A DNA stretch of 64,000 bases, from contig OY540810.1 in the NCBI GenBank assembly GCA_961205875.1, positions 682,001-746,000 on the forward strand. Reading direction: 5' to 3'. This document shows positions 1 through 61,172 of this stretch, one piece after another. The notes under the pieces are model-generated. The model made no database searches, was not told the origin of the DNA, and saw only the letters and a program-made list of their open reading frames with translations. Source of the DNA: Sialis fuliginosa (lineage: Eukaryota; Arthropoda; Insecta; Megaloptera; Sialidae). The translations under genes and the position numbers were made by a program. Positions within the stretch are counted from its first letter, which is position 1, and each line of letters begins with the position of its first letter.

Positions 1-12610
<12,610 letters not shown>

Positions 12611-12983: not shown

Positions 12984-14189
12984 TTATTTTAAATATCCAT
13001 TAAATATAAAATGTTCAATAACAAATTTAATTCTATTTAATACATTTTCGCCAACATCGACATCAATTAATTCATTGAATGTGAATTCATGTAAATCACT
13101 CACATCATTGTTAGCTACATATACAATTTTTTGCATATAAATTAAGTGAGAAAACTCAAGAATAGCTGATGATCTTAAATGATTTAAAAAAACATCAAAT
13201 GTGATAGTACGTATATCAAATTTTAATTCTTTTAAATTCTGTATTAAATTTTCGTAATAAAATTTAATAAAATAATCAAAACGAACTTTAATTAATTGTT
13301 CTTCAACGCTGGATAATAGAAAAAATAAAAGATCTTGAATTGGGGAGCCTAATCGAGTAATTTGGAAATCAATAAATTTCACATTTAAATCGTTATTTAT
13401 CATAATGTTATTAACCCATAAATCATTATGAACCATCGTTCCAAATGGTTCTACGATAGGCGGCATACAATCAAACATTAACAAAGATTTTTCATAATTA
13501 TCAAAAACTTTCTCTAAATTTTCTTCATCGACAATTTTCTTAATTTGACTTTTAACACTTTCCTTCCATTTTATCTTAAATTCGTTATCTAAATTCACTT
13601 TAACATTGATTAAAGACGGCATAACAGATTCATTAAATTCTTCTTTATGATTTTGTCGAAATGACATAGGAACTGCATGAAAATAAGCCAAAGTTTTTAA
13701 GATCTGTTCTATTTCTTTTACGTTAAACCCTGTAATACGATCTTTCACAAAATACCCTTCCGTTTTCAAGTTCTGAAATAACATAACTCCATCTTTATCA
13801 ACAATATCGTCGTTTTGTAAACTGTATCGTGTTCCGTAACATTTAGGGAAAATATCACAATAATTCTTATCAATAGTGCCACTTTTATCTTGAAACTTCT
13901 TCATCAAAGGAGCTACGTGAGTGTAAACTTGTGCTTCTTTTTTAAACGAAACTGGAATATCAAATACCTTCCATAATAATTCAGTTGGTGGTGGAAGTTT
14001 TGCAATTAACGATACGTGTTCTTCTTTTCCGTCTTCTGAAGTTATTATGTTTATTAGGTACATAATACTTCCGTAGTTTTCACCAGCTTGGTTTAGATTT
14101 TTGTAATTCTTTACTAAAATTTCTTTATCGGATTTAATGTGCTTCTTTACGAAATCTAGTACGTTTTTAAGATTGTTGAATTGCTCCAT
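12984..14189 (-). CDS. EcKinase-like (CHK domain) putative kinase, single exon
   Basis: A 401-residue intronless protein of the ecdysteroid-kinase-like family (EcKinase/CHK, formerly DUF227 or 'juvenile hormone-inducible'). Seen in the sequence: a glycine-loop-like AGENYGSIMY at 35-44, an ATP-site lysine in LIAKLPP (K64), a helix Glu in KKEAQVY (E85), a catalytic loop HNDLWVNN at 254-261 (H254, D256, N261) and a metal-binding IDFQ (D274). All key kinase-fold positions are present, so it looks active, and the length is typical. The family phosphorylates small molecules such as ecdysteroids or detoxification products; the substrate here is unknown. It lies between PP1-beta (374 bp downstream) and DHX57 (about 1.1 kb upstream) on the same strand. 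Start at ATG 14189 because the frame upstream is non-coding. AATAAATAAA overlaps and follows the stop codon and may serve as the poly(A) signal. Confidence 0.92.
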   Translation of the reverse strand: MEQFNNLKNVLDFVKKHIKSDKEILVKNYKNLNQAGENYGSIMYLINIITSEDGKEEHVSLIAKLPPPTELLWKVFDIPVSFKKEAQVYTHVAPLMKKFQDKSGTIDKNYCDIFPKCYGTRYSLQNDDIVDKDGVMLFQNLKTEGYFVKDRITGFNVKEIEQILKTLAYFHAVPMSFRQNHKEEFNESVMPSLINVKVNLDNEFKIKWKESVKSQIKKIVDEENLEKVFDNYEKSLLMFDCMPPIVEPFGTMVHNDLWVNNIMINNDLNVKFIDFQITRLGSPIQDLLFFLLSSVEEQLIKVRFDYFIKFYYENLIQNLKELKFDIRTITFDVFLNHLRSSAILEFSHLIYMQKIVYVANNDVSDLHEFTFNELIDVDVGENVLNRIKFVIEHFIFNGYLK

Positions 14190-18400: not shown

Positions 18401-21400
18401 GGTTAGTTATTTTCCATATTGTTCATAGAGATAATATAGCATAGAGAAAGTAAGCCATAGCATTTTGTGTGGACACCAATCATAAATAATAAGAAAAAGC
18501 GGCATTTTACAACAAAAAGTTGTCCACAGAATGTCAAATTGTAAATATGAACCGCCATCTTGGAAACATGCATTGTTTGACAAAGATAGATAGAGGTCCA
18601 CAATCTTTTCTTTCTCTTTCTATTGACAGTTATTATTTTCAGCTGCCTCACTTTCTCTATGTTATATTATCTCTATGATATTATTACCTCTATATCTAGA
18701 TATCAACTGGGAAATTGTCAACTGTTCATCTTTTAATGCATCTCTAGGCATGTCATTGAATTTTTTAATCAAACCGGTTTCTAAATCTTCATCTAAGTTA
18801 TATCCAGTGACTTTCACTTTACGGCTATACTGAGAGTTCTCTTCTATTACGTAGTCTGATAGGTCTAAAATCTCTTCTAAGAAAATCTGTTCTACTGGAT
18901 ATGTTTTCCCAGGGATTTCTAGCATTGGCATGTTTCCGTAGTAGTTTGAAAACAGACTTGCGTTCATTGTTGCGCTCATGAGTATTATTTTTAAGTCAGG
19001 CCGCAGTGGTAGTAAGTCACGTAGAATGAGAATTAAAAAGTCACTGAAATTAATAAATACAAATAGTTCTCTCTAAACTCTAAAATAGGCTGACCATTTT
19101 TTTACGAGGGGGGGGGGGGGGGTGACAGTATAATGAAAGACCTTTTTTTTCAGTCACAGCAAGTTTAATAAAGTAAAAAAAATGAGTGTGTGTACTTATG
19201 TACGCGTGTTAAAAGTTATACTTATACTTTGGCGTTATTGAAAAACAACTACGAAAAATTAACCTCAAATATTTAAAAAACATATTTGGAACAAAATATG
19301 CATGAAACATAATGAGTACTTATCAAAACTTTTATTGATTTAATAAACAATAAAAATTATTACTAAAATAATTTTAAATACATCTCTAGTGAATTTTCAA
19401 GTTCAAATAATATTAAGTTAGCAATGAAAATACATTTAAATTATGATTGTTGCATTTGTAACGTGATTTTACTAACAATAAGTAACTGAACAGTTGTAAA
19501 AATGTAAAGTAAAAAACTAGACAAGTATTCAAAATGCAAGACCTCTAAAATATCCAATCAATAATATTACCTTCTAATTTTAAAGCAAAATAAAAAGTAA
19601 CAGAGAGAGGTTAGAAAACAAATAAATGTCTCCTGTGATTTCAAAATCATAAAGGATAAAATATGAACTTACCTTTCTTCGCTTCTTTCATGAACCTCAT
19701 CTACAATAACATGCGTCACAGACTGAAGCTGAGGATCACTTTGTAACCTTCTCAACAATATACCTGTCGTACAAAACGTAAGTCTAGTCATCGCCGAAGA
19801 TTTCGTCTCTAATCTTATCTGATAACCGACAACATCGCCTATTTTCTCTGCACGTTCTTCTGACACTCTTTCAGCCACTCCAATCGCTGAAAGCCTTCTT
19901 GGTTGCGTGCATATTATCTCTGTATGACTGTTACTACGTCTGTTTTTTAACCAGTCGTCTAATAAATACTGCGGGACTTGGGTACTTTTCCCACACCCCG
20001 TCTCACCGCTAATCACGACAACTTGCGATTCATTAACTGCTTTAAGTATGTCTTTCATTTTATTCCACGACGGTAACTTTTGCCGGATTTCGATGAATCT
20101 TTTATACTTTGAATCGTTTTGTTTTTCTATGAATTTTTCAGCGATTGTTTTATCGTCTCTTAATAGTTTTTCTAACGATATAAGCGATCTGTTGTCTCTA
20201 TTCGTTTTTCCTTTTGTGTAGTGCGAAGGGAGGTTTCTACGCACGGTTGGTTTATTTTTGGCTTCAGGAGGAAAGAGCATTTCTGATTCATCGATGAAAT
20301 TGATTTTCGTCGTTTTTAAATAATTCACCATTTCCGATTCATTGTTTAACAATTCACAAATCGAATATATCGAAACTATTCCTTGTTCGGCTAAACTATT
20401 AGCCTCTTGTATAAGTCTTTTGCAAATATGCAATCTTAATAGTTTTGGCATGCAATTAAAATTCGTTCGGAGTAAAATAATCGGAGCTTCGAACGGATAC
20501 GTGGTTTCTTTCGGAAAACGAATTTCTAACGTAAACGAATAATCTTCGATGAAATCTTTAGTCGGCTTCTTTTCGACTATATGAAGAAATCGACATTTAT
20601 CCCCGAATTTACAATGTCCTTTTATATAATTCCTACATTTCGGTCTATTAGGATTCTCTACCTTTTTTTCTAATACTGGGTTATTCTTAGTTGTATAAAT
20701 TTGTACTAGGTAATCGAGTTTAAACGTTAAACTCCAGATTAAATTCGATATATTCTCTTGAAATATATTTCCGTAGATTGATTCCATTGCGTGTTTTTCA
20801 TCTTTCCGTTGTTCTAAAAGTTCTTCAATCGAGTGGTCGTCGCAGATATCTTTTTTTTCCTCAATGTTATAATATTTATCGTAAAGTAACAGTAAAGATT
20901 TTTCCAAGTCTCCGTTATTATAATTTAATGCTTCTATACAATGGCTGTTATGAAATCCATAACCTTCTAGTTTAATTATTGCATAAGATCTAAATTTATC
21001 TTCGTCTGTTTTTTTTAGGTCGGTACTATTTAATGAATTATCACAACCCCCCCTTACAACTAAATTACCACTACCTATCCAATATGAACTATTAAGATTT
21101 GATTTTTTTTGTTTATATGCTGTTGCGTCAGTCAACGTAAAATCCTAGAAAAAATTCAGCGTTTTAAATATGATAAGACAATATTGAATTAGATCATACC
21201 GGTCCATGGATATACTTCAACGTTTTCATTATTTTTTCCTGAGAATTATCATCAAGATAGATTGTTTGTAATTCAGCCTTTACCATTGCTGGTCTTTCTA
21301 CTTTATTAACAATGCTAAAATAAATTAAAATATTGTTATAACCTTGCAACAGGATGTGCACAAACAAAATTACCCAATTTTAGGATTGGCTATTGCTTTT

Positions 21401-23763: not shown

Positions 23764-24723
23764 TACAGGTTGATTTATTCGGCGATACGAATATTTTCAA
23801 GGAAGGTAGAATGAATCATTTGCAAGTGATTTAAGCAAATATACCTATATACAAAGTGCAACAGTTTTTTTTATATCGGCCATTTTAGTAAATTTTTAAT
23901 CGCAAAAGTTCAAAAGTTAAACAGCCTATATTTTTTAAACATGATTTTTATATTACTTAAATATTTATCAGATCGAAATAAAATTTATAATAAAAAATGG
24001 CTGCAGTTTAAAATTTAAAAACTTATAAAACTTTGATAAAATTATTTTATAAAATCTAGTACACTTACAGATGTTCAGATAGTTTTAAAAACTGCTCTTT
24101 TTTATACCCTTTCGAAAAACTTACCATAATACCTACATGAATTGGCTATTTTTGTTAAAAAAACATACATTTATCTCAGAATAAGTAAAATTTTTACATT
24201 TTTCCAAATAAATAAGTCATTAAGAACGTGATGCTTTTCAAAGATTTTTTTATACACATCTAAGGAAGATCCTGTCCATTGAGTATAAAAAAATATTTGA
24301 AAAGAATCACGTTTTTAATGACTCATTTATTTGGAAAAATGTAAAATTTTTACTTATTCTGGGATAAATGTAAGTTTATTTAACAAAAATAGCCAATTCA
24401 TGTAGGTTTTATGGTAGGTTTTTCGAAAGGGTATAAAATACAACAGATTTTAAAACCATCTGAACATCTGTAAGTGTATTAGATTTTATAAAATAATTTT
24501 ATCAAAGTTTTTAAATGTTAAACTGCAGCCATTTTTTATTTTTGCTATTCATAAATTTTATTTTAATCTGATAGTGTAGCATAGATATTTAAGTAATATA
24601 AAAATCATGTTTAAAAAAATATAGGCTCTTTAACTTTTGAACTTTTGTGATTAAAAATTTACTAAAATGGCCGATATAAAAAAAACTGCAAAATATTCGT
24701 ATCGCCGAAAAAAACATTCTGTA
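23764..24723. mobile_element. Foldback (full-length inverted-repeat) element, TA TSD
   Basis: 960 bp; left end TACAGGTTGATTTATTCGGC and right end with ATTCGTATCGCCG...CTGTA, flanked by TA. The two halves mirror each other nearly throughout (for example CCTACATGAATTGGCTATTT against its complement), meeting near 24243. Likely Tc1/mariner-derived by TSD and TACAG end; noncoding. Confidence 0.82.
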
Positions 24724-28590: not shown

Positions 28591-29060
28591 ATAAGGTACC
28601 AGTCTTGGATATGACCCCAGTAATGGCTATTTTTTAATTAAATGTACTGAATTAGAAATATGTGTTGATATTTGATTACTACCATTTCTGAATATTAATC
28701 TATATACATTTAACTGACTTACAGCGCGATTTGATGACAATCGGCCAATAGGTGTCAAAATGGTGGATATTTAAACTAATTATTAGTATAATTTATTTAT
28801 TAATTATTATATTATCATAGCAACTGCAACACATTGTTTCAAATTTAACTCTTTTATATCTTTTGTGTCGTAGTACTTATCATTAGCAAGTGTCCTCATT
28901 ACTGGTTTTACTTTATCCATTACTGGAGAAAAAACATGAACAAAATGAAAGGCTATAATTTAAAAAATAAACTATATTTGCGGACTTTGGTAATTAAATT
29001 GATTAAATAAAGAGTTAGTTGTTTTATTTGTAACATGAGTTCATGAGAATTACAAAAAAA
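28591..29060 (+). mobile_element. R2 palindromic MITE, right end missing
   Basis: Starts ATAAGGTACCAGTCTTGGAT. Contains TTGATTACTACCATTTCTGA, AATGGTGGA, the TTATATTATCATAGCAACTG core and TAACATGAGTTCATGAGAAT. The right end is replaced by a G/C-rich hAT-like end (GGTGCGCCACTGG). Confidence 0.75.
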
Positions 29061-29607
29061 AAAACACACCTAAAAAACCCCTAACGTCCCTTGGGTGCGC
29101 CACTGGCTGCAAATAATTTTGTTTCTGAATATAATTTATCATTTGATAATCTGGTTTTTAACATACGTTTTGGATTTTCCTTTCTAGCCAAGAAATATAT
29201 GAATTCATTGAACTATTTTGTAAAAATGCATAAACCCATTTTTATTTTGGAATTTTTGTAAATATTTTTCAGGGAAAAACTGCCAAGATTTATCCAAATT
29301 CTTATTTCCTGGTATTTTAAAATTTGGTTATTCAAAAATTATGATTGGGTTTATTTTTTATTTTATTATTTTCCATATTAGCAGAATTTTTATGAGATTT
29401 TTGTTTGTTTTAATACAAATATAGTAGAACCTCGAAATAATATAAATAGTAACTAAAAAATTTTATTGAAAATATTTTTCCCCTATACAGCGTTAATTTT
29501 TTTATAAAACTTAAAAAATGAGTCGCACCCAGAAAAAAAATAACACTATCGATTTCCATCCCGGGTGTTCCCCCCTTATTTAGAAGAATTTTGCAATTGA
29601 ACCATGG

Positions 29608-29905
29608 ATAACTCCTGTAGAGCATTAAATTTCCTATAATATGGATCTACAACGTTTGTTGTAAAATATTCCCTTACAAAGATTTTTAAATGTAATTTTG
29701 ACATTTGCATAAATTTAGATTTAGATTGAAATTGTCAAAAAATAAAAAATATATGAAAAAATATTCAGGTGCGTGTTAAGAAAAATTTCGAACTAAGATT
29801 TTTTAGTAAAATTTGTATAAAAATTAACCAATGCCAGGCAATTTATCTTTTGGTGAATTTAGCACGAGGAAGCACTGTGCATTTACTTGTCAGATGTTTT
29901 ATTTA
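29608..29905 (-). mobile_element. R1 repeat, internally deleted
   Basis: Reverse-strand: TGTAGAGCATTAAATTTCC, AACGTTTGTTGTAAAATATT, TTTAGATTTAGATTGAAAT and the head TTTAGCACGAGGAAGCACTG + TGCATTTACTTG. Its 3' half is absent. Confidence 0.75.
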
Positions 29906-30404
29906 TTTGTTTATTTACCTGATACAAATAGACAGAGCAAATGTTTAAATCCTTGAAGAAATTTAAGTAGTCAATGTAAATGATTCATAATTGAGTTTAT
30001 TAAGTCACTTATTTCACATCAATGAAAGTCACAGTGTTTATAGTAATGTTGTGAAATAAACAACAAATGCATTACCTCTACCGTCTTATCAGTGAAACTG
30101 TTGTAATTAACCTAATGTTTAATTGTTCTTTTAATTATTCTGTAAACGAATACACCTCATAGTTTAGATATTTAGAAATATGTGCCTATCTCCATACAAA
30201 AATTAAATTGATATGGCTACCTATACGAGAAGCTTTGTATGCTATTTTGCAATAAACCGTTAAATATTGAATAAAATAATGCAGTAAAGAATTATGTAGA
30301 ATCAAAATATCTAAAATATATTTTTCAAAAACAATAATTCAGTAGTCCACGCGAGTGAAGCCGCGGTTCGAGAATAATATGTAAGAAGAAATAAATTAAA
30401 TTAA

Positions 30405-31145
30405 AGTAAAAACATCTGCCAAGTAAATGCACAGTGCTTCCTCGTGCTATATTCACCAAAGGTAGTTAATTATTCAACAATTTAAATAAAAACCGATTGT
30501 GTTTTTATAAATTGCCTGGAATTGGTTAACCATTTAATTTTTATACAATTTTACTAAAAAAAATGAGTTCGAAATTTTTCTTAAAACGCACCTAATTATT
30601 TTTTCATATATTTTTAATTTTTTGACAATTTCAATCTAAATCTAAATGCAAATGTCAAAATGACATTTAATATATCCAAGCAATATCAATTTAGAAAAAC
30701 AAAACACGAATTTAAAAAATAAATTGAGATAAATCTTTGTAAGGGAATATTTTACAACAAACGTTGTAGACCCATATTATAGTAAATTTAATGCTCTACA
30801 AAAAATATTCTTTAAAATTTTCACGTAACATGTGTCGTTCTTGTCACCCCTCCCCCTTACATACGATTTTGATGATTTTGAAATGATACCGTCCTCAAGC
30901 CAGACCCAACCATCCGACCAAGTTTCAATAATATCGGTTCAGTGGTTCATGAGTTATGCATGTGACAAGGATTCAGGGGACAGACGGACGGACACACAGA
31001 CAGACAGACACGGAACGAAAAGTGTTTGCGTTGACGTGAAACGGATAAATCAATTTAAAATTTTGAAATCGGAGAATATTTTTTTTGTCTCAATCTGAAA
31101 CGATCACAAAGCTTCTCGTATCTTCGATATTGCGAGGAAGCAAAA
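30405..31145 (+). mobile_element. R1 repeat, most complete copy
   Basis: Runs from AACATCTGCCAAGTAAATGC, through GCTTCCTCGTGCTATATTC and AAACCGATTGTG, then the central AACGTTGTAGACC, CGTCCTCAAGCCAGACCC, CAGACAGACAG and AAACGGATAAATCAATTT, to TTCGATATTGCGAGGAAGC. Short inverted ends GCTTCCTCG / CGAGGAAGC lie near the two borders. No intact frame; class unknown. Confidence 0.82.
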
Positions 31146-32399
31146 TATGACAATATCCATTTTACAAACAAGATTATAAAGTAACGTATTAATTACCTGC
31201 AAGATATGTTATGTACATTCTTGCATCTCGGAAATATACAGTTACGAAACTCATCATGTTTATTGAAAAATATAATTACCGATTATGTACATATTTTTTT
31301 ATTGTACATTTTATTGCATTGTCATACGATCTGCATTATACAGGGTGGTCCGGTTTGGGGGATACAGATATATTAAGAGCTGATTCCTTGGCTCAATCTG
31401 AGTAAAAAATTGTACGGGAAGGTGGGGTCTATCTTCAACACCCTCTGAGCTACAGGTGTTTAAAAACTTCCTTCAGAGTAGTATTTACAAACAAAGATTA
31501 TCTCATAACTTCCAAAGTAACGTAACTAGAGTAACCACAATAAGTCAGTTTCATAGGATATTAACTAACGTATTTTTCAGTATTAGCGTTATTGCTAATC
31601 GTATTTCCAGTTTAGAGTTATTGCTCATCAAAGTCAAAAAATATATTTCTTTTTTTGAAAATTTTTATGAAAATGACTTTTTTTTTCAAAAGTACCTATA
31701 ATATGTACTATTTTTTATCATTATTTTGGTGTGTCATAATATTACCTACAAATTCACTATACAAAGTTTGGACCTGTGTTTTACAGTTTTCCAGTTATAA
31801 ATTTAGCTAAATAATCCTATTTTACTATTAAATGAAACAGTCATAATTTTTTTCTGTTTATAATTACATAATTAGTTATAAAATTTTATAAATAACCATT
31901 AACAATAAAATTATTATTATATACATTCCTGGGTATTCTATGATTATTTATTATATAAATGAAAGAAAACGTAATTCATCTTGTAGGTAAAAATAAATTA
32001 ATTTTTTTTGTCCCCCCAATTTTCACGCACTGGTGATAGTTACGACCCTGGTTAAGCTCTAGCTAATATACATATTAATATGAATAATATGCAATAAGTT
32101 ATTTATTTAATCAAAACATAATTTTTGTTACATTCCATCATATAATTCCACTCGAAAAAAAAGTTTTAAGTTATTAAATATTAAATATACATACTATACA
32201 TTTTATAATAATGAATATAGTCACGGTTGTGATGCTACAAAGTGAGAGAGACAGAGTCTGTAGTGCGAGGTACCCAGTATTGACATTTGCAAGTGAAAAA
32301 TTCTTTCTTTCCGGTTACTTCTTATGAAACATTTACCTCAAATGTTTAAAGCATCATTATTCTACGTATCGAATCTATTGTTTAAATTAATTCAATTTT
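31146..32399. other. Intergenic with solo TACAGGGTGG end and shared block
   Basis: ATACAGGGTGGTCCGGTTTG near 31339 looks like one end of a DNA element without its partner. From about 31640 to 31900 the sequence (AAAGTACCTATAATATGT, TGTGTCATAATATTACCTAC) recurs at about 45560-45850. No gene seen. Confidence 0.5.
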
Positions 32400-32745
32400 T
32401 TATAATACGCGCCTGATTATTTTCGTATATTTTTAGTTTTTTAACAATTTAAATTATTCTGCTATGGAAACGTCAAAATTACATTTAAAACGTCACAATG
32501 ACATTTAAAAAAACATATAAAATAAGTTAATATCAATTTGAAAAACAAATGACGATTTTTTAAGCAAATGGAGATAAATCTCCGTAAGGGAATATTTTAC
32601 TACAAAAATATAGCTACCTTTTTTGTAGAAAATTTAATGCTCTACAAAAAAGATTCTATAAAATTTTCGCGTAACATGTGTCGTTCTTGAGATATTTTGA
32701 AAAAAAAACACAATTTTGATGATTTTTATATGGCACGTCCTCTAT
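32400..32745 (+). mobile_element. R1 repeat fragment
   Basis: GTAAGGGAATATTTTAC, ATTTAATGCTCTACAAAAAA, GTAACATGTGTCGTTCTTGA, with R1-type upstream sequence (CAATGACATTTAAA). Ends in the ACGTCCTC region; terminus missing. Confidence 0.7.
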
Positions 32746-33234
32746 AAGGGCTAATTGGGGTAGACATTATGTAAACATTTATATATGGCACCAAAGAATA
32801 TAAAACTAGATGTTTATTCTTTACCTAATGATCGTTTTCTATTCTATTATATTTTATAGACGAAGTGTCGCTCTATTTTACATTTTACATGTATAGTAAA
32901 TAATAATTATAGACACTACTAGTTTGTAAAAAACTTTCACATTAATCAAAATCTATAAATATCTTCAGTACAGTTATACTACAAGTATTAAAAATCACAA
33001 TACATGTTGGATCGTAGAAATAATTACGTTATAAAAAAGTGCAATTAGCTATTTTTATATATACAATTCAAGTTTTTTTTTATTTCACATTTTATTAAAA
33101 ACGAGATGGATTGATCTTGAAATAATATCAGTGTCGTCAAGAAAAGATATTATTAATTTTATAGATTCAAATCTGACGCGATGAATCTAGGTTTAATGGT
33201 TTAGATAAATTTCGTCTCGTCTTGTCTTATAAAA

Positions 33235-33550
33235 ACTTTGATCATAAAAATTTAATTTTATATATTCAAATTTTTGATTTTGAAAACAAATATCTCGTTG
33301 CTGAACGGTTAAAATCAAATGGTTCTAGTACATTTTTTGTGGTATTTTAGGAGACCTATCTAAAAATACCCCACTTAATGGGGTACGAGAAAAAAAATCT
33401 TATCTCGAATTTTAATTTTATATTCAAACTTTTGATTTTGAAAGCAAATATCTCGTAATTGAAGGGTTAAAATCACATGTTCCTGGTACATTTTTTGTTG
33501 TATTTTAGGAGACCTATTTAAAAACACCTAACTCAATGGGGTAAGTGAAA
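33235..33550 (+). repeat. Imperfect tandem duplication, ~170-bp unit
   Basis: Two copies sharing TTTTGATTTTGAAA, CAAATATCTCGT, GGTTAAAATCA, ACATTTTTTGT, TATTTTAGGAGACCTAT and CAATGGGGTA-type blocks. Upstream part of a retroposon-like stretch that ends in a CAGACAGACAGCC tract near 33690-33705. A related sequence (GTGTTTTTAGATAGGTCTAC) is at 52810. Confidence 0.6.
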
Positions 33551-34231
33551 AAATTGAGTCTATGGGAGGGGGTTCAAATATTTTTTGTAAAACACATTTC
33601 CCTTTTTGGGTCATCAATGGACATCCGTATATAAAATGTCATCTTAATAGGTGTATAAATGATAGAATGGGAGGGCTGTGACTGTGACATACAGACAGAC
33701 AGCCAACGGACAGAGCGAAAAATTTTTTTTTGTTAATTTTAACAAAACACCTTATATAATTTATGTTATATTTAAAATTTTATTTGGTTAAAAAGTTTTT
33801 TTAAAATAATATGAAGAAAAAAAACTATTTCAGTCTACAAAATATATTTGTCTGAGGGTAAATAAAGCCAAGACTGATTTTCTTGACTTAACATACAATT
33901 TTTCAAAATAAGTGACATAACAAATACATTTTTTGTGACATTTTGTATGAAAATTACCGATGATGAGCTAGAATGAATTTAGCAAAAAAATATCAATCAC
34001 AATTTGCGATAATGTATGCATACAATGTCTCCCAGACAATGAATGACAACAATGCGTACAGAATGGAGGATGAAAGTTAAATATCTTTTTATATAAGGTA
34101 AGTAAACCAATGCAGAAATAACAGTGGCTCATAAAATGTTTTTATCGATACGAAGATATAATTTTTGTAAACTTTAAAATACAAAAATAAAACCGATTTA
34201 AAAAAACCCTAAAAACACTGAAAAGAATATA

Positions 34232-34710
34232 ATAAGGTAAAGGCACCAGTTATGGCCGCTATAAGAGCAAGTTTTCGTTTTTTGTAATTCTCATGAACTC
34301 ATGTTACTAATAAAACAAGTAACTTTTTATTTAATCAATTTAATTACAAAAGTCTGTAAATATAGTTTGTTTTTTAAAATTATAGTCTTTTATTTTGTTC
34401 ATGTTTTTTCTCCAGTAATGGCAAAGGTAAAATCAGTAATGAGCACGCAGTGATGGACACTTGCTTATGATAAGTACTACGATACAAAAGATATAAAAGA
34501 AATAATCGTCAAATTTAAAACAATATAAAGAAGTTGATATGATAATATAATAACTAATAAATAAATTATACTAATAATTAGTTAAAATGTCCACCATTTT
34601 GACAGCTATTGGCCTCATGTGATGAAATCACGCTGTAAGACAGTTAAATGTATATAGATTAATATTCAGAAACGGTATAGTAATCAAATATCAACAAATA
34701 TTTCTTAATT
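34232..34710 (-). mobile_element. R2 palindromic MITE, one end lost
   Basis: Starts ATAAGGTAAAGGCACCAGTT. Contains GCCGCTATAAGAGCAAG, AGTGATGGACACTTGC, the GATAATATAATAACTAATAA core and TCCACCATTTTGACAGCTAT. Truncated near 34710 at the R5 repeat. Confidence 0.75.
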
Positions 34711-36215
34711 AAAGATCTCGATTAGATCTACAAGTAAAAATTAACACATTTAGCCAGTTTTAATGAGTGATAAATTTAATATTATACAAAAACAACAATA
34801 AAAAATTAAATTTTGTATATCCACGATTATGAATATTAATTAAATGAATTTAAAAAAATAACAGGATATTAGAATATATATTCTACGATCTAACGTTTTT
34901 AATTTTATGATTAAAGTTTCTTAAATTGAATAAAAAAAATAAAAATTATATTTCGTGTTTCCACAATTTTGTTTGTAAATATTAATTATTTATTTTTATG
35001 TTCGTACAAATCATAACAAATAACTATATTATACAATACTAGTCTGGTTTTTATTTAATCAGTGGCGAGGCGTGAAATTTTTAATAAGGGAAGCATATTT
35101 TGTCAAACCTCCCCCTCCTATTAACAAAAAAAACTAGTTATGAAACACCTTAAGTTCAAGCTTTTACTTTTTTAAATAAATTCTTATATATTTATATAGT
35201 AACTAAATGATTCTACGTCTTATTTTCTTGTGTTTTAGTCGATATTTGTATGACGAGTTGAAGTTCACTGCAGGAAATTTCACTAAAAATTTTTGTATTT
35301 TTGATTTCGTTAAAAGTATGTTTATTGTATAGAAAATGACGTGAAAAGTTGACTGTTTCAAACCGCAGGTCTGTATCTCAAACCGTTCTCGAGATATAGG
35401 CTCTCAAAGTTTCAGTTTTTTCAAAATTTTGAAGAAAAATGGCCCTAACTTTTGAACGCGTGGTCGGAATTGATTTTAGTTGACGGATTTGGAATCAGCG
35501 TGTCAAAATCTATATAATGACATGTATAATACTTTAAAATCTGACAAAAAAATTTTGGTCAAAAATCGACATTTTTTTAAGGTATACCCCTTTGAATTTT
35601 TTCGATTTTTCGCGAAAAATTTTTTTTCGAGTTTTAAGGTATTATAAGTGTCATTATATAGATTTTGACACGCTGATTCCAAATCCGTCAACTAAAATGA
35701 ATTCCGACCACACGTTCAAAAGTTATGGCCATTTTTCTCTAAAAATTTGAAAAAACTGAAACTTTGAGAGGCTATATCTCGAGAACGGTTTGAGATACAG
35801 ACCTGCGGTTTGAAACAGTCAACTTTTCACGTCATTTTCTATACAATAAACATACTTTTAACGAAATCAAAAATTCGAAATTTTTTAGTGAAATTTCCTG
35901 CAGTAAACTTCAACTCGTCATACAAATATCGACTAAAATACAAGAAAATAAGACGTAGAGGTATTATAGTTTTATAACTGAGCGTGTAAATTAATATTAA
36001 ATGCTATCTTTGATTAAAATGTTTGAGTTGCGCATAAAGATGAATATTCTAATGTATTTAAATTATTTATTAACTGAAAATACAGATTTGTATTAATTTA
36101 CCAATAAAGTAAGAGAAGCACTGCTTCCCTTGCTTCCATGGACGCTTCGCCACTGTATTTAACCTCACTGCTACGTATTCACGTTATTCCCTTGACTGTG
36201 CACTCCGACACAGTC
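34711..36215. repeat. R5 repeat, split by a hAT foldback element
   Basis: R5 left part 34711-35059 and right part 36156-36215 are contiguous in the copy at 15588-15955. Together the two copies show precisely where the hAT element entered. Confidence 0.75.
35060..36155. mobile_element. Complete hAT-type foldback element with 8-bp TSD
   Basis: 1096 bp; ends CAGTGGCGAGGCGTG and GCTTCGCCACTG, flanked by TATTTAAT (35052-35059) and TATTTAAC (36156-36163). The interior is a long inverted repeat with arms meeting near 35600 (CAGACCTGCGGTTTGAAAC, AACGGTTTGAGATACAG and complements). Noncoding; depends on a transposase elsewhere. Confidence 0.88.
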
Positions 36216-40710: not shown

Positions 40711-41251
40711 TTTAAATAAGTATCCAACACTGGAGTTAAATCCAGTACATTATAAATTGTATAAAGTAAATGATAAGTTTAGTTTCATAGTGAACAACCT
40801 TACACTAGAATGCCATTAATATATTTAATTATACATATACATAATTAGTATATTCTTGAACTTGCATCTAAAATGACATTGAATCTCGATATAAAATTTA
40901 TGCGATATATAAAATATTATTTATGTTCATCAACTCGATTGAAGTAATATAATTTATAAATAAATATTATGAATATTAAAAAGCGTTTAAACATATGAAA
41001 GTAAAAGTGATTTTTTTATTTCATACATTTATTGAAAGTGAAATTGTACATATTATCACCAATTAAAATATATTATGTATGAATGCACTTCTTGAATTCA
41101 GATATGAAATTGATCGGTTAACAGGAAGGGGGGGGGGGGGGGGAGTTATTTAAATAGTGTATGTATTTTATTATTTTATTTTATGTAAAATTTGCTAGCT
41201 TGCAAACACTTTCAAATGGGGTATCAAATTTAAAACAAACAAAAAATGTTA

Positions 41252-41742
41252 TAAGGTACTGGCACCAGTCTTGGATATTACCCCAGTAATGGCTATTTTT
41301 AAATTAAATGTACTGAATTAGAAATATTTGTTGATATTTGATTACTACCATTTTTGAATATTAATCTATATACATTTAACAGTCTTATAGCGTGATTTGA
41401 TCACATGAGGCCAATAGATGTCAAAATGGTGGACATTTAAACTAATTATTAGTATAATTTATTTATTAATTATTATATTATCATAGCAACTGCTTTACAT
41501 TGTTTCAAATTTGTCGATTCTTTCTTTTATATCTTTTGTGTCGTAGTACTTATCATTAGCAAGTGTCCATCACTGCGTGCTCATAATTGGTTTTACTTTA
41601 TCTATTACTACAGAAAAAAAAACTATATTTGCGGACTTTGGTAATTAAATTGATTAAATAAAGAGTTACTTGTTTTATTAATAACAAAAAGAAACCAAAA
41701 ACAGTATACTTTATAGCGGCCATAACTGGTGCCATTACCTTA
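41252..41742 (+). mobile_element. R2 palindromic MITE, complete
   Basis: TAAGGTACTGGCACCAGTCT to AACTGGTGCCATTACCTTA. Complete reference copy, with ACAGTCTTATAGCGTGATTT, AATGGTGGACATTT, the TTATATTATCATAGCAACTG core, GTCCATCACTGCGTGCTC and TTTATAGCGGCC in order. Confidence 0.85.
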
Positions 41743-41769
41743 TAACTTTTTAATTTTAACGCTTCAGTC

Positions 41770-42200
41770 ACGATATATTTACTTTTAAATATGGTTATCA
41801 GAACGTCCCCCCCCCCCTAAACTATCAATTTAAAAAATCTGAAAAAATTCCAGAATGTAGCTTTTAATTAGTACTTTCAATGAAAATTATAACGAACACT
41901 GTAGTAAAAATAGTTTATGAAAAATTTTGAAATAACTCTTTTTTTATAAATCGTAGTGACTACGGAAACCTATCATATGCGTGCCCAACACGCACTTGAC
42001 TGTTTTATTTATATAAACATGCAAGTTTGATCACAAAGCTTCTCGTATCTTCGATATTGCGAGGAAGTAAAAAACGAACAAATTGTAGCAAAAATAGTTT
42101 TTGAAAGAACTCTTTTTTATAAATCTTCATAAAAATGACTACGGAACTCTATCATGTGTGTGCCCAACACGCACTTGGCTGTTTTATTTACTAACGGACA
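41770..42200 (+). mobile_element. Retroposon 3' tails, two tandem fragments
   Basis: Two stretches share AATAACTCTTTTTTATAAAT-like sequence, ACTACGGAA, CTATCAT and GTGCCCAACACGCACTTG + GCTGTTTTATTTA, the recognisable tail of an insect non-LTR retroposon. An R1 3' terminus (42027-42068) sits between them. Another copy at 52505-53075. Confidence 0.6.
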
Positions 42201-42222
42201 GACAGAGAGACGTTGTGCTTTA

Positions 42223-42613
42223 TACAGTGTATTCCAAGTTGATTAAGACATAAGAAATTTAACATGGGGACAATTAGAAATGTTGTAGTAACCTTTGGTC
42301 AAATTTAACGATGTGTGATTGGTGCATTTTGAAATGCCGCCTCGAAACTAACTGATAAATTTTAAATTAATCAACAGTATTTTGTTTAACATTAATGAAA
42401 TTAAAGTAAGCATCCTAGATAAAATTATAATAATATTTTTTGGCAGATATAAATTTGAAAACAAAACACTAATTACTATTTTTTTAAATTTTTTAGCGGC
42501 ATTTCAAAATGCACCAATCACACATGGTTAAATTCGATCAAAGGCTACTACAACACTTCTAATTGTCCCCATGTTAAATTTCCTATGTCTTAATCAACTT
42601 GGAATACACTGTA
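42223..42613. mobile_element. Palindromic TA-flanked MITE (TACAGTGTATTCC ends)
   Basis: 391 bp; ends TACAGTGTATTCCAAGTTGA and complement, flanked by TA. Arms extend through ACATGGGGACAATTAGAA and GCATTTTGAAATGC. Intact, and shows the empty site for the nested insertion in its relative at 53088-54340. Confidence 0.83.
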
Positions 42614-42990
42614 TATATTAATTACTTATAATGATTTCGTGACAAATTAATTTATAACAGTTACAAGCGTAATTGGATATGTCCTTAATCAATTCACGAG
42701 AACTACCTTCTTATACATACAAAGATTGCAATTACACCAAGTAAGAAATGTGCTGACAAGTTTTGAACCCATGCCATCTAGTAACAAAACACTAATTCTG
42801 CAAACTCATTATAAGCGATTTTTTTATATTACTAGGCTGGCAGTAAAAATGCAATTAGTTCAAAACAACTTGCGATTTTCTCTGATGCACGGTATCAAAA
42901 ATGATTAGTTTTCAAAAACTGGCAAAAGAAAACACCCTTTTGAAAATTTTTTATAAGCGATTTTTATTTTTTTATAATACATTAACAAAA

Positions 42991-43492
42991 CCACCAGTTA
43001 TGGCCGCTATAAGAGCAAGGTTTACTGTTTTTGTGATTGACGGGCTTATTTTTTGTAATTTCCATCAACTCATGTTACTTATAAAACAAGTAACTCTTTA
43101 TTTAATCAATTTAATTACCAAAGTCCGCAAATATAGTTTGTTTTTTTAAATTATAGAATTTTATTTTGTTTATGTTTTTTCTCCAGTAATGGATAAAGAC
43201 ACTTGTTAATGACTACAAAAGGTATACAAGAAAAAATCGTCAAATTTGAAACAATGTAAAGCAGTTGCTATGATAATATAATAATTAATAAATAAATTAT
43301 ACTAATAATTAGTTAAAATGTCCACCATTTTGACACCTATTGGCCAATTGTCATCAAATCACGTTGTAAGACAGTTAAATGTATAATATTCAGTAGTAAT
43401 CAAATATCAACAAATATTTCTAATTCAGTACATTAATATTAAAAAGAGTCATTACTGGGGTCATATCCAAGACTGGTGCCAGTACCTTATAA
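42991..43492 (-). mobile_element. R2 palindromic MITE
   Basis: CCACCAGTTATGGCCGCTAT to AAGACTGGTGCCAGTACC. Left terminus slightly eroded. Same order of blocks as 41252-41742 in reverse. The short frames here are chance. Confidence 0.8.
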
Positions 43493-44227
43493 TCATTTTT
43501 CTATTATGCACTGTATCAAAAATAAAAAAATTTAAAAAATTGGCAATAGAAAAGACCCTTTTCTGGTTTAGTAATGCTCTTCAAAAATAGACGAACAAGT
43601 GCTAGTAGGACTAGCGCCCTGAGTGTTCCGTACAAACTATATAATGTCATTTATTATTATTAACATAAATTTTTTACAAGACATTTTTTAAACATCCTTC
43701 AAAAAACGAAGTGTGCATTTTACGGTCAAGCCATGTTATTTTTAAAAATTTTCCCTGTAATGAACAAAACTCCAGGCATCATATTATTTCTTTTACGTAA
43801 TTCTACATTGTTTGAAACAATTTTTTTATCAAATCACTGTAACAATTAAATTTGTGTCAATTTGAGCGTACAAATTAATATTACATTTGTGACAACAACA
43901 GATTTCTAACCGGAAGTGAAGACATTGTGCGACGGAAATGCAACTATATGTATATATTTTCTCTTTTGCACTGTTTTCGTTAATGCTTACTTGGTTTTCG
44001 AATTTGAGGAAGTTATAATGTATAATTAAGTAAAAAGAATAATAATTATCAACCCGTGCAATGGGATTTTAGAAAAACAGTAATTTCTGTTATTATAATT
44101 AGCTGTGCATTAATTTTTTTTTCTTTTATAGCTCTATATAATAATTGCTATATTTATAACTGACAAGCCTATGTGATATTTGTTTGAATGGATTGTTAAG
44201 GCCATTATTAAACATTGATCTTGACAT

Positions 44228-49562: not shown

Positions 49563-50160
49563 TAAAGGTCTTCGGGCATTAGATAGTCTTAAAGATAATA
49601 GTGTAAGCTATATTTAAAAAAAACTGGAGTCTCCTCGATCGCGCCAAGCTGACATATTAACTATTCAACTTATTTGTTAAATTTTCAATTTAAATTTCTT
49701 AATAATAGCCCAAGGCGGTTACGAAGGTCTTCGGGCATTAGATAGTCTTAAAGATAATGATGTAAGCTATATTTAAAAAAAAAACTGGAGTCTCCTCGAT
49801 CGCGCCAAGCTGACATATTATCTATTCAACTAATTTGTTAAATTTTCAATTTAAATTTCTTAATAATAGCCGAAGGCGGTTACGAAGGTCTTCGGACATT
49901 AGATAGTCTTAAAGATAATAGTGTAAGCTATATTTAAAAAAAAAACTGGAGTCTCCTCGATCGCGCCAAGCTGACATATTAACTATTCAACTTATTTGTT
50001 AAATTTTCAATTTAAATTTCTTAATAACAGCCGAAAGAGGTTACGAAGGTCTTCGGGCATTAGATAGTCTTAAAGATAATAGTGTAAGCTATATTAAAAA
50101 AAAAAACTGGAGTCTCTTCGATCGCGCCAATCTGACATATTAACTATTCAACTTATTTGT
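49563..50160 (+). repeat. Satellite-like array, four ~160-bp units
   Basis: Units begin near 49565, 49725, 49885 and 50046 with AAGGTCTTCGGGCATTAGAT (one GGACATT). They continue TAGTCTTAAAGATAATAGTG and CTCCTCGATCGCGCCAAGCT. The four differ at few positions. An R1 head piece (AACATCTGCCAAGTAAA) adjoins the left edge. Confidence 0.92.
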
Positions 50161-50506: not shown

Positions 50507-51310
50507 TACAGGGTGGGGCATTTAAGAACCATCGCATATTTGAAAAAAATGTTTCAACCAAAAAATGTTTGGTTGTAAGGGGATAATCGAATAGTAATAT
50601 TTATTTGCTATTTTAACGTGGCCTATAGTTTTTATTTAGTAATCTTATTTTACATGAAAAAATACGAATCTTTCATTGGAAACTTTTTTTTGAACAACCC
50701 AAGCTTTCCAAGGTATCTAACAAAATAATTCGAGATTTTGAATTTTCAAGAATTTTTTACTCAGAAACCATAAACTTTAGAAAAAAAGTACAAGATACAA
50801 AAAATGTTTATTTTGGTCTAATAAAATTATTTTAGATTTTTTTTAACATTTCGGAATTTTTTTGTGTTTTTGCTAAAATAAAATAAATAAAAAAAGTTTT
50901 TTAAAGTTTTAAATTTTTTTTAAATAATTCTCCATGCTTTATTAGACCAAAATAAATATTTTCTGTATCCTGTACTTTTTTTCTAAAGTTTGTGGTTTCT
51001 GAGTAAAAAATTCTTGAAAGTTCAAAATCTCGAATTATTTTGTTAGATACCTTGGAAAGCTTGGGTTGTTCAAAAAAAAGTTTCGTGTTTTTTCACGTAG
51101 AATTAGATTACTAAATAAAAATTCTAGGTTCCTATTTAAAAAAATGATGTGGACCTTCAAATATCCTTGAAGGCCACGTTAAAATAGCAAATAAATATTA
51201 CTATTCGATTACCCCCTTACAACCAAACATTTTTTGGTTGAAACATTTTTTTCAAATGTGCGATGGTTCTGAGATAATCAACTGTAACACTTTAAATGCC
51301 CCACCCTGTA
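50507..51310. mobile_element. Foldback element with TACAGGGTGGGGC ends, TA TSD
   Basis: 804 bp; ends TACAGGGTGGGGCATTTAA and complement. Arms mirror nearly to the centre near 50910 (CAACCAAAAAATGTTTGGTTG, ACCTTGGAAAGCTTGGGTTG and complement). Flanked by TA. Noncoding; probably mariner-like by ends. Confidence 0.85.
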
Positions 51311-51601: not shown

Positions 51602-52116
51602 ATAAGGTAGTGGCACCAGTAATGGAAAATTTACAATTAAATATACTGAATTTGAAATATGTGTTGATATTTGATTACTGCAATTTCTGAATATTAATCT
51701 GTATTATACATTTAACTGTCTTACAGCGTGATTTGATCACATGAGGCCAATAGTTGTCAAAATGGTGGATATTTCAACTAATTATTAGTATAATTTATTT
51801 ATTAATTATTATATTATCATAGCAACTGCTTTACATTGTTTCAAATTTGACGATTCTTTCTTTTATATTTTTTGTGTCGTAGTACTTATCATTTTGTAAT
51901 CATTAGCAAGTGTCCATTACTGGAGAAAAAACATGAACAAAATAAAAGGCTATAATTTAAAAAACAAACTATATGGTAATTAAATTGATTAAATAAAGAG
52001 TTACTTGTTTTATTAGTAACATGAGTTTATAAGAATTACAAAAAAATAAGCCCATTAATAAAAAAAAAACACGAAAACTTGCTCTTATAGCGGCCATATC
52101 TGGTGCCTTTACCTTA
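51602..52116 (+). mobile_element. R2 palindromic MITE, complete
   Basis: ATAAGGTAGTGGCACCAGTA to TATCTGGTGCCTTTACCTTA. Full set of R2 blocks; slight internal deletion of the GAGCACGCAGTGATGG segment. Confidence 0.82.
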
Positions 52117-52242
52117 TATCGAATTGTGTGATTTTATGTGTTTGTTATATTATATAGTTAAAAGTGATTTTTTAAATGGAAAGAAATAATAAGTATTTTT
52201 TATTTGAATATAAGGTAATAAAATTTATTTAATCTATTAAAT

Positions 52243-57145: not shown

Positions 57146-57945
57146 TGTAACACCTTAAATTCAAGCTTTTACTTTTTTAAATTCTTATATAAATATTTAT
57201 ATAGTGACTAAATGATTCTACGTCTTATTTTCTTGTATTTTAGTCGAAATTTGTAAGACGAGTTGAAGTTCACTGCAGGAAATTTCACTAAAAAATTAAA
57301 AAAAATTTATTTCGTTAAAAGTATGTTTATTGTATAGAAAATGACGTGAAAAGTTGACTGTTTCAAACCGCAGATCTGTATCTCGAACCGTTCTCGAGAT
57401 ATAGCCTCTCAAAGTTTTAGTTTTGTCAAATTTTTGGAGAAAAAAGGCCATAATTTTTGAACGCGTGGTCGGAATTGATTTTAGTTGACGGATTTGGAAT
57501 CAGCGTGTCAAAATCTATATAATGACATGTAAAATACCTTAAAACTCGAAAAAAAAAAATTCACGAAAAATCGAAAAAATTCAAAGGGGTATACCTTAAA
57601 AAAATGTCGATTTTTCGCGAAATTTTTTTCCCCGAATTTTAAAGTATTATACATGTCATTATATAGATTTTGACACGCTGATTCCAAATCCGTCAACTAA
57701 AATCAATTCCGACCACGCGTTCAAAAGTTATGGCCATTTTTCTTCAAAATTTTGAAAAAACTGAAACTTTGAGAGGCTATATCTCGAGAACGGTTTGAGA
57801 TACAGACCTGCGGTTTGAAACAAACAACTTTTCACGTCATTTTCTATACAATAAACATACTTTTAACGAAATCAAAAATTCAAAATTTTTTAGTGAAATT
57901 TCTTGCAGTGAACTTCAACTCGTCATACAAATATTGCATTTTACT
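57146..57945. mobile_element. hAT foldback interior, second copy without ends
   Basis: Matches 35160-35945: TTCAAGCTTTTACTTTTTTA, AAGTTGACTGTTTCAAACCG, TTTGGAATCAGCGTGTCAAA and complements, with arms meeting near 57570. The CAGTGGCG ends are absent. Confidence 0.8.
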
Positions 57946-58326: not shown

Positions 58327-61172
58327 ATAAGGTAAAAGTACCAGTTATGGCCGCTATAAGAGCAAGTTTTCGGTTTTTTTTGGTTTAATGAGCTTGTTTT
58401 TTGTAATTCTCATGAACTCATGTTACTAATAAAATAAGTAACTCTTTATTTAATCAATTTAATTACCAAAGTCCGCAAATATAGTTTTTTTTTTAAATTA
58501 CAGCCTTTTATTTTTTTATGTTTTTTTTTCTAGTAATGGATAAAGTAAAACTAGTAATGAGCACGCAGTGATGGACACTTGCTAATGATAAGTACTACGA
58601 CACAAAAGAATCGTCAAATTTGAAACAATGTAAAGCAGTTGCTATGATAATACACTCACGGAAAAAATTAAAGGACCACTTTTATTTTTCGAAAAAATTG
58701 CTCATTTTCAAAGTAATGCCGATAGGTCAAATATGATCCATTTTTTACTTATAGGATATGAAAATTGTAGGAAATTTTATCATCTTTTCGAATTTAGGGG
58801 TACATTTGTTTTATTAAACTTATTATTGTGACCAAATCGCGGTTTAATAAAAAATAAAAAAATTGATTTTTTTTTGCAATTTTGAAAGATACCCACGGGG
58901 ATGTTAAATTTTTTTTCTAAAATTTCTAGATAACCATTTTGTAGGAAATTTGTTCAGCTTTAAAACGCTTTTTCAAATTTGTTTTATAATTTTTTGGTGT
59001 TACGATATTCGAGTTTGAATGAAAAAAGTACTAAAAAGTTTTAAACGACCATAAAGGGCCTAATATTAGTCGCACAGAAAAGAAAAAAAAAGAATATTAA
59101 AGCTTAAATAATCACCTATTGTCTAGTAGCATTTATAAAATGTTTAATTTTAACCTAACCCTTCAAATACGAAAAACAAAACAGTGTTCGAATTTAAATA
59201 ATCCTGTAAAAATAACCTTTTTTTAATCATAGACCTAATGTTTAAAATGTATCCAGAAATTAAGTTCTATCAAAGAATATGAAAATTAGACTTATTACCT
59301 TCTATGTGAACAAAGGTTCCAGTAAAAATCTTTTAATTTGGCTGAGAAATTGCATCTTGTATTTATTGTATACGTTTAGGATTTGACCGTACTTTTTATA
59401 ACAATTTTTTCTTTGGGATTTTTTTTTCGAATAACAATCAATTTTTGAGAAAAATTGTAAGAAGGAAAAAGTTTTTCTTTCTTGTTAAAGAATATTCATA
59501 ATTTTTTTCAGATGTTTTATATTAATATTATGGGATTAAATTTATTTTTAATAGGGTACTTTTTCATTCAAACTTGAATATCTTGGCATCAAAAAATGTG
59601 ACAATCATTTTTTAAAAAGCATTTTGAAGTTGAGAAAATTTACTAAATGATGAATGTCATGGATTTTTGAAAAAAAATAATCATACATCCCCGTGTGAAA
59701 TTTCTATAACTGCAAATAAATAATTAATTTTTTTTAGTCAACTACGTGTGGACCAAAAAAATTCAGTTACTTTGAACAAATAAGCGGTGAAAATTCAATG
59801 AAAATTAATTTAACTGTTGAAATCAAGAGTCTTTAATATGTTGTTGAACGTTTTTTCATGACCACTCGCAGTTGACAGAAATTAAAAATTGAAATTTTTT
59901 GCTATTATGGAAGTTTCACACGGGGATGTATGATTATTTTTTTTACAAACTTCCATGATGTTCATCATTTAGTAAATTTTCTCAGCTTCAAAATGCTTTT
60001 TAAAAAATGATTGTCACATTTTTTGATGCCAAGATATTCAAGTTTGAATGAAAAAGTACCCTATTAAAAATAAATGTAATCCCATAATATTGATATAAAA
60101 CATCTGAAAAAAATTATGAATATTCTTTAACAAGAAAGAAAAACTTTTTCCTTCTTACAATTTTTCTCAAAAATTGATTGTTATTCGAAAAAAAAATCCC
60201 AAAGAAAAAATTGTTATAAAAAGTACGGTCAAATCCTAAACGTATACAATAAATACAAGATGCAATTTCTCAGCCAAATTAAAAGATTTTTACTGGAACC
60301 TTTGTTCACATAGAAGGTAATAAGTCTAATTTTCATATTCTTTGATAGAACTTAATTTCTGGATACATTTTAAACATTAGATCTATGATTAAAAAAAGGT
60401 TATTTTTACAGGATTATTTAAATTCAAACACTGTTTTGTTTTTCGTATTTGAAGGGTTAGGTTAAAATTAAACATTTTATAAATGCTACTAGACAATAGG
60501 TGATTATTTAAGCTTTAATATTCTTTTTTTTTCTTTTCTGTGCGACTAACATTAGGCCCTTTATGGTCGTTTAAAACTTTTTAGTACTTTTTTCATTCAA
60601 ACTCGAATATCGTAACACCAAAAAATTATAAAACAAATTTGAAAAAGCGTTTTAAAGCTGAACAAATTTCCTACAAAATGGTTATCTAGAAATTTTAGAA
60701 AAAAAATTTAACATCCCCGTGGGTATCTTTCAAAATTGCAAAAAAAAATCAATTTTTTTATTTTTTATTAAACCGTGATTTGGTCACAATAATAAGTTTA
60801 ATAAAACAAATATACCCCTAAATTCGAAAAGATGATAAAATTTCCTACAATTTTCATATCCTATAAGTAAAAAATGGATCATATTTGACCTATCGGCATT
60901 ACTTTGAAAATGAGCAATTTTTTCGAAAAATAAAAGTGGTCCTTTAATTTTTTCCGTGAGTGTATAATAATTATTAAATAAATTAGTTTAAATGTCCACC
61001 ATTTTGACACCTATTGGCCTTATGTCATCAAATCACGCTGTAAGACAGTTAAATGTATATACATAGATTAATATTCAGAAATAGTACTAATCAAATATCA
61101 ACAAATATTTCTAATTCAGTACATTTAATTAAAAATTTACAATTACTGGGGTCCTTGCCAACACTACCTTAT
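58327..61172. mobile_element. R2 palindromic MITE containing a nested 2.3-kb foldback
   Basis: ATAAGGTAAAAGTACCAGTT at left, CAACACTACCTTATTA at right. R2 sequence is continuous across 58652/60963 apart from the duplicated TA, matching the core GATAATATAATAATTAAT of other copies. Confidence 0.8.
58653..60962. mobile_element. 2310-bp Tc1/mariner-like foldback with double symmetry, TA TSD
   Basis: Ends CACTCACGGAAAAAATTAAA and complement, flanked by TA at 58651-58652 and 60963-60964. Arms of about 1.06 kb are nearly exact inverted repeats around a ~195-bp spacer at 59711-59905. Each arm is also an imperfect hairpin: CACGGGGATGT, TTGTTCAGCTTTAAAACGCT and GATATTCGAGTTTGAATGAA in its outer half answer ACATCCCCGTG, TTGAAGTTGAGAAAATT and CATTCAAACTTGAATATC in its inner half. 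No transposase. Confidence 0.88.

What the first reader, a model, noticed from the sequence alone, without database searches (positions are those of the whole stretch)
58653..60962. Foldback transposon with hierarchical (four-fold) symmetry
A 2310-bp TA-flanked element has near-exact arms of about 1.06 kb, and each arm is itself an imperfect hairpin whose halves share the CACGGGGATGT, AGCTT(T/C)AAAA and GAATGAAAAA-type blocks. This suggests two successive inverted duplications of a smaller ancestor: an old one that has diverged, and a recent one that is almost identical. A transcript would fold into a very long dsRNA, a potential siRNA or piRNA source.
Basis: partly seen in the sequence, partly recalled or inferred. 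Interest (0 to 1): 0.75.

Follow-up and report, generated by a model that had tools for sequence, protein, structure and literature searches.

The report
Tc1-derived foldback transposon with self-matching arms
A repeated, non-coding jumping DNA element in an animal (probably insect) genome is a giant palindrome made from one end of a Tc1-type transposon, and its two arms appear to be kept alike by copying from each other rather than by having been duplicated recently.

Summary
The element is real: 2,310 bp at 58653-60962, between duplicated TA, with near-identical arms of about 1.05 kb. Each arm holds a second, older inverted symmetry well above shuffled controls. It belongs to a high-copy family: 442 exact terminal ends genome-wide; 39 copies average 98.0% identity.

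It is a non-autonomous foldback of Tc1/mariner type. Four decayed elements join the outer 709-784 bp of the arm to the C-terminus of a Tc1-like transposase. No intact coding partner was found.

The proposed history changes. The central halves are diverged inverted copies of each other, and a relative with a centre about 10% diverged has the same arrangement, so the palindrome is old. The arms evolve in concert: 211 two-armed variants against 1.8 expected, and 23 of 29 differences in one copy. They concentrate in mid-arm (80 of 210 variants, against 8 of 82 near the ends). Arm-to-arm gene conversion fits best. Long dsRNA is physically plausible but untested. Foldbacks and palindromic Tc1 relatives are a known kind; this is a well-documented variant.

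The parts
58653..60962 (.). whole foldback element, 2,310 bp
58651..58652 (.). left TA of the target-site duplication
60963..60964 (.). right TA of the target-site duplication
58653..58677 (+). terminal motif CACTCACGGAAAAAATTAAAGGACC
60938..60962 (-). terminal motif, inverted
58653..59698 (+). left arm (family positions 1-1046; consensus arms identical to 1048)
59917..60962 (-). right arm
58653..59436 (+). outer part of left arm shared with the 3' end of a coding Tc1-like element (family positions 1-784)
60179..60962 (-). the same in the right arm (mirror coordinates)
58802..59057 (+). quarter 1: outer copy of the old inner symmetry
59522..59802 (-). quarter 2: inner copy, inverted and diverged
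59813..60093 (+). quarter 3: inner copy in the right half
60558..60813 (-). quarter 4: outer copy in the right arm (mirror coordinates)
59699..59916 (.). centre: two diverged inverted halves, not homogenised
58894..58904 (+). CACGGGGATGT block 1 (others: 59685-59695 minus, 59919-59929 plus, 60711-60721 minus)
   Evidence: placed by eye
58327..58652 (.). host repeat interrupted by the element, left part (right part 60963-61165)

Best explanation
It is a non-autonomous, cut-and-paste foldback (palindromic) transposon of the Tc1/mariner superfamily. Its arms consist of the 3' end of a Tc1-like element, up to about 150-200 bp before the transposase C-terminus, followed by an inverted, diverged second copy of part of that end. 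The inner copy is perhaps the other long terminal repeat left by an internal deletion (inferred). A transposase supplied in trans would act on the identical termini and insert the element at TA (inferred from termini, TA duplication and recent copies). The palindrome is old. Its arms are kept alike by arm-to-arm copying, most likely gene conversion during repair of excision breaks or in a snapped-back hairpin. Shown: TA duplication, family, kinship to a coding Tc1-like element, old centre, concerted variants. Inferred: which repair pathway, which transposase, and the origin of the inner quarters.
For: TA directly on both sides in 38 of 39 fetched loci and four empty-site paralogues. 442 exact ends genome-wide. 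Identical or near-identical copies at sites without shared flanks. Coding relatives: L085 has both termini, arm positions 1-709 in pieces (by eye to ~770) and a 154-aa piece matching DDE_3 at E 1.7e-12. An independent search with that peptide gave 5 other places at 80% identity or more; 3 of the 5 were fetched, and 3 of 3 carry the arm (1-709; 1-782 in pieces; 1-784; 80-96% identity) next to the transposase C-terminus. Concerted arms: 211 two-armed variant incidences against 1.8 expected; 164 against 1.4 with 29 collapsed lineages; 23 of 29 differences two-armed in L066 and 25 of 35 in L050. Mid-arm 80/210 variants against ends 8/82, Fisher 8.6e-7. Old centre; L053 has the same centre at 195 of 216. 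L064 repeats part of its left flank beside a truncated arm, as an interrupted gap repair would leave it.
Against: No intact partner transposase was found: the longest open frame among the six places of 80% identity or more, the query itself included, is 155 aa (150 of 331 candidates scored). None of 15 downstream flanks of other Tc1-like genes shows this terminus. A copy's own partner arm is the closest right arm in only 16 of 39 copies, so homogenisation is incomplete; 489 of 701 variant incidences are one-armed and 1 is discordant. L069 has more one-armed (41) than two-armed (20) differences, L053 47 against 41. The sharp step from identical arms to a diverged centre also needs one wholesale recopying event. 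None of the four coding relatives showed the inner quarter beyond its likeness to quarter 1, so its origin is not shown.
Confidence: 0.8

Rival explanations
1. One reading: two successive inverted duplications, the second very recent, with arms alike simply because they are young.
For: Consensus arms are identical up to position 1,048 with a sharp boundary; the inner symmetry is clearly older.
Against: The centre between the arms is itself a diverged inverted repeat. L053, with 21 of 216 centre sites changed, already has the palindrome. Two-armed variants exceed independence 211 to 1.8.
Confidence: 0.1
2. Repeated rebirth: new palindromes form again and again by copying one whole arm (template switch or inverted gap repair), and each rebirth founds a subfamily.
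For: In L066 and L050 most differences from the consensus are two-armed (23 of 29, 25 of 35). The sharp boundary at 1,048 looks like one such event.
Against: Among the 39 copies two-armed variants are rare near both arm ends (4 of 34 and 4 of 48) and common in mid-arm (80 of 210); whole-arm copying predicts no such pattern. The same centre is kept throughout the copies compared.
Confidence: 0.2
3. The hairpin itself is selected: transcripts form long dsRNA that feeds host small-RNA silencing, and base-pairing keeps the arms alike.
For: A transcript would form one hairpin with 1,014 mirror pairs.
Against: Any palindrome would; matched changes here are identical variants in both arms, as copying gives, and no transcription evidence was available. 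Selection would have to act on hundreds of copies.
Confidence: 0.05
4. Assembly artefact: the second arm is a mirror error.
For: Palindromes are hard to assemble (general knowledge).
Against: 38 further copies with the same structure and with 2 to 29 arm mismatches each, TA on both sides in 38 of 39 fetched loci, and a distinct centre with empty-site paralogues.
Confidence: 0.01

Closest known systems
Palindromic Tc1-related repeat of C. elegans (Dreyfus and Emmons 1991, seen only as a citation in PMC3212995; the name Tc6 is recalled)
   Same: Palindromic repeat related to a Tc1-type transposon (title as cited; that it is non-coding is recalled)
   Different: Paper not held, so not compared; a four-fold symmetry and arm-to-arm conversion are not recalled for it
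Galileo (P superfamily) in Drosophila, PMC3573991 and PMC4168063 (passages seen)
   Same: Long terminal repeats 98-100% alike within a copy; the authors suggest repair of one repeat from the other as a way in which such repeats extend
   Different: P superfamily with 7- or 8-bp target duplications and internally repetitive ends; this element duplicates TA and has Tc1-like coding kin
Tetris foldback of D. virilis, PMC4079207 (passages seen)
   Same: Foldback, non-coding, autonomous copies not found; [quoted passage not shown]
   Different: 8-10 bp target duplications, assigned to Mutator by its authors; its arms carry 220-bp repeats
Long-TIR and MITE-forming Tc1/mariner elements of insects, PMC5490172 and PMC3212995 (passages seen)
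   Same: TA duplication and long terminal repeats (20-600 bp quoted for Tc1-like elements); high-copy deleted derivatives; six palindromic MITE-like clusters in Anopheles gambiae
   Different: The passages describe internal deletions or unclassified palindromes, not two nested palindromes with concerted arms

Membership tests
Tc1/mariner superfamily | TA target-site duplication | tested here: met
   TA directly on both sides in 38 of 39 fetched loci, L020 excepted; four empty-site paralogues with a single TA
Tc1/mariner superfamily | DD34E-type transposase in an element with the same ends | tested here: met
   DDE_3 remnant in L085 and three relatives joined to this arm. The 34-residue D-to-E spacing was counted by eye in the L085 frame; the N-terminal half is missing, so only the second D and the E are seen
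Tc1/mariner superfamily | intact autonomous partner in the same genome (usual, not strictly defining) | tested here: inconclusive
   Not found: one search scored 150 of 331 candidates; longest open frame among places of 80% identity or more is 155 aa; search lists are capped
Foldback elements | very long inverted arms making up most of the element | tested here: met
Foldback elements | tandem sub-repeats in the arms (classical Drosophila FB; recalled) | tested here: not met
   No tandem array at 58653-60962 at score 120 or more; the sub-repeats are inverted. It is called a foldback for its shape only
MITE | high copy number, no coding capacity, uniform length | tested here: met
   no ORF of 130 aa or more in the element
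MITE | short length (under about 600-800 bp; recalled) | tested here: not met
   2,310 bp; a 202-bp derivative, L052, exists
C. elegans palindromic Tc1-related repeat | sequence homology | not testable with these tools
   paper not held

The most novel reading that the evidence does not exclude
The palindrome works as its own backup copy: each arm is the repair template for the other, so transposition-linked repair corrects mutations in the middle of the arms and lets a non-coding element stay mobile longer. In this genome Tc1-like elements turn into such end-outward palindromes by a general route: seven inverted transposase C-terminal pairs and six inverted N-terminal pairs, probably of one family, were read from capped lists, and the two fetched are palindromes.
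Probability: 0.25. Interest if true: 0.65.

Novelty: new variant of a known kind. Interest (0 to 1): 0.42.

Why it matters
It shows that near-identical arms of a foldback transposon need not mean a recent origin, which is the natural first reading. A family with more than two hundred copies of ends of one palindrome makes arm-to-arm conversion measurable by position along the arm. It also ties a foldback family to a Tc1-like parent by shared sequence in four elements, and points to further palindromes from other Tc1-like elements in the same genome.

Tried and rejected
A search for an autonomous partner through odd spacings or lone ends of the terminal motif (20 loci) gave insertions, deletions and fragments; none carried a transposase belonging to this family. 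The Tc1-like gene in L064 is a separate element with its own ends. The 3' flanks of 15 Tc1-like genes did not show this terminus (best match 9 mismatches in 25 letters). The terminal pattern had no match in IMG/VR. Rfam: no match in the window at gathering thresholds. The CACGGGGATGT block with a changed preceding base (32 places against 4 for the backwards control) led to L085; of two further hits fetched, L087 showed no kinship and L086 is a fragment; the other 29 were not looked at. A first L053 comparison was distorted because a duplicated piece was joined in (134 right-only changes); it was redone and the first numbers dropped. L061 gave only 16 comparable arm sites. L047, a double copy on C7, was left out of the 39. 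The 39 copies are those that score best against the window copy (40 of 782 candidates scored), so older members are under-sampled. Paper searches (listings) showed no description of this double structure; the library lacks most subscription journals. Variant counts cannot tell gap repair from hairpin mismatch repair.

Full report
What is there. The window copy runs from 58653 to 60962 between duplicated TA dinucleotides. Its arms are 99% complementary over 1,025 bp of element and continue at 87% for about 40 bp. A genome search placed the window at G000:C2:682001-746000 of a 392-Mb, 20-contig genome and scored 40 of 782 candidates; 39 places match over the full or nearly full length at 96-100%, and one place on C7 holds two partial copies. 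The 39 copies (the window copy plus 38) average 98.0% pairwise identity, range 96.6-100%. A pattern of the terminal motif with TA has 227 forward and 215 reverse exact matches and none for the backwards control. Of the 100 ends listed there, 68 form 34 pairs at 2.25-2.32 kb spacing (counted by eye). No flanks of 500 bp match between different copies over 150 bp or more among the 38 fetched, so these are separate insertions. The window copy interrupts another dispersed repeat, four paralogues of which show the empty site with a single TA.

The inner symmetry. Aligning the outer part of the left arm to the reverse complement of the inner part gives score 882, against 617 +/- 30 and at most 718 in 500 dinucleotide shuffles. 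The strong part is positions ~150-405 against ~870-1150, about 80% of aligned columns alike. Splitting the centre, the left half of the loop against the right half scores 248 (1,000 composition shuffles: 110 +/- 14, maximum 161); the right half against the outer quarter scores 216 (maximum 171); the left half against the outer quarter scores only 184, which 1 of 1,000 shuffles reached. So the four quarters are kin, and the palindrome continues, diverged, nearly to its axis. In the consensus the arms are identical to position 1,048; the halves of the centre beyond it agree in 81% of 90 aligned columns, with many gaps.

Where the arms come from. The pattern KCACGGGGATGT, chosen to miss the usual copies, has 32 matches, one of them 1.5 kb from a DDE_3 hit. 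That stretch (L085) is bounded by two copies of the terminal motif with 2 mismatches each, next to TA. It carries arm positions 1-150, 206-590 and 605-709 at 88-93%, extended by eye to about 770, and a 154-aa frame that matches DDE_3 at E 1.7e-12. A genome search with this peptide (150 of 331 candidates scored) gave five other places at 80% identity or more, all short fragments. All three carry the arm next to the transposase C-terminus: L088 arm 1-709 at 85%, L089 arm 1-46, 70-632 and 672-782 at 80-96%, L090 arm 1-784 at 83%. In L089 and L090 the arm ends about 160 and 150 bp from the transposase C-terminus. None shows the inner quarter beyond the likeness it owes to quarter 1. The longest open frame in these relatives is 155 aa, so the mobilising transposase is not identified. 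Fifteen flanks of other Tc1-like genes do not end in this motif.

The arms evolve together. Relative to the family consensus, the 39 copies hold 206 left-only, 283 right-only, 211 same-in-both and 1 different-in-both variant incidences over 1,020 arm sites. Independence would give about 1.8 same-in-both. With ten near-identical copies dropped (29 lineages), 164 are seen against 1.4 expected, and 35 of 185 lineage-private variants are in both arms. Counting each of 292 variants once, 80 of 210 in mid-arm are two-armed in some copy, against 4 of 34 in the outer 150 bp and 4 of 48 in the inner 146 bp (Fisher 8.6e-7 for middle against ends; 2.9e-7 with 29 lineages). Copies outside that set: L066 has 23 two-armed and 6 one-armed differences, L050 25 and 10, L069 20 and 41 plus 1 discordant; L053, the most diverged near-complete copy compared, 41 and 47 plus 1 discordant, with the same centre at 195 of 216. 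Mean divergence is 1.25% between the arms of one copy and 2.10% between left and right arms of different copies, but the own partner is the closest right arm in only 16 of 39. Copying between arms is thus frequent but patchy.

Reading. The outer palindrome existed before the L053 lineage and the main family parted, yet the arms of L066 are still about 99.4% alike (6 of 1,044 sites differ). Recent duplication alone does not explain this; arm-to-arm copying does. Concentration in the middle of the arms fits conversion tracts better than rebirth of whole arms, although one early wholesale recopying is needed for the perfect consensus arms. L064 gives a hint of the repair route: one older arm, truncated, followed by about 22 bp repeated from its left flank and an otherwise empty site, as interrupted gap repair would leave.

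Other Tc1-like palindromes. Reading the lists by eye, I found seven pairs of inverted C-terminal pieces with the 3' ends outward (start-to-start spacings) and six pairs of inverted N-terminal pieces with the 5' ends outward, all six at one spacing and so probably one family. Two were fetched and are palindromes of 94.6% and 96.6%. The lists are capped, and I did not test them by script for pairs in the opposite orientation.

RNA. A transcript of the whole element would fold as one hairpin with 1,014 mirror pairs, as any such palindrome would. Nothing here tests expression.

Literature. Foldbacks are said to arise from several superfamilies (PMC4079207, passages). Galileo repeats are 98-100% alike within a copy, and repair from the other repeat has been suggested (PMC3573991, passages). 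Palindromic elements are reported in A. gambiae and cited for C. elegans (PMC3212995, passages). Listings of searches showed no account of this family or of the double structure. Verdict: a real, Tc1-derived variant of a known kind, with unusually clear evidence of concerted arms.

Noticed in passing
58327-58652 and 60963-61165; kin at 28595-29063, 34231-34710, 41252-41687, 42992-43507, 51602-52117: The element sits inside another dispersed repeat; L064 holds an older copy of the same family at the same TA of another copy of that host repeat.
   Followed up: partly
35212-35959, 57249-57932, 24027-24511, 3154-3354: Other near-perfect palindromes with 3-21 nt between arms in the same window; ends printed, families not identified.
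   Followed up: no
41241-43500, 50520-51275, 28680-34677: Further long inverted-repeat pairs; the first and last include kin of the host repeat of this element.
   Followed up: no
49565-50160: 161-bp tandem array (3.7 copies), also present as a longer array in L056 next to a truncated copy of this family.
   Followed up: no
L091 (G000:C1:33318300-33320350) and L092 (G000:C8:16811500-16813050): Palindromes of other Tc1-like families containing inverted halves of the transposase gene, ends outward.
   Followed up: partly
L064 1134-1250: A truncated arm followed by about 22 bp repeated from the left flank and an otherwise empty site, like interrupted gap repair.
   Followed up: partly
17619-18335 and 19669-21135 (minus); 12984-14189 (minus): Open frames that look like pieces of a DEAH-box RNA helicase gene and an ecdysteroid-kinase-like gene (names recalled from the translations, no family search run), in line with an insect.
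   Followed up: no
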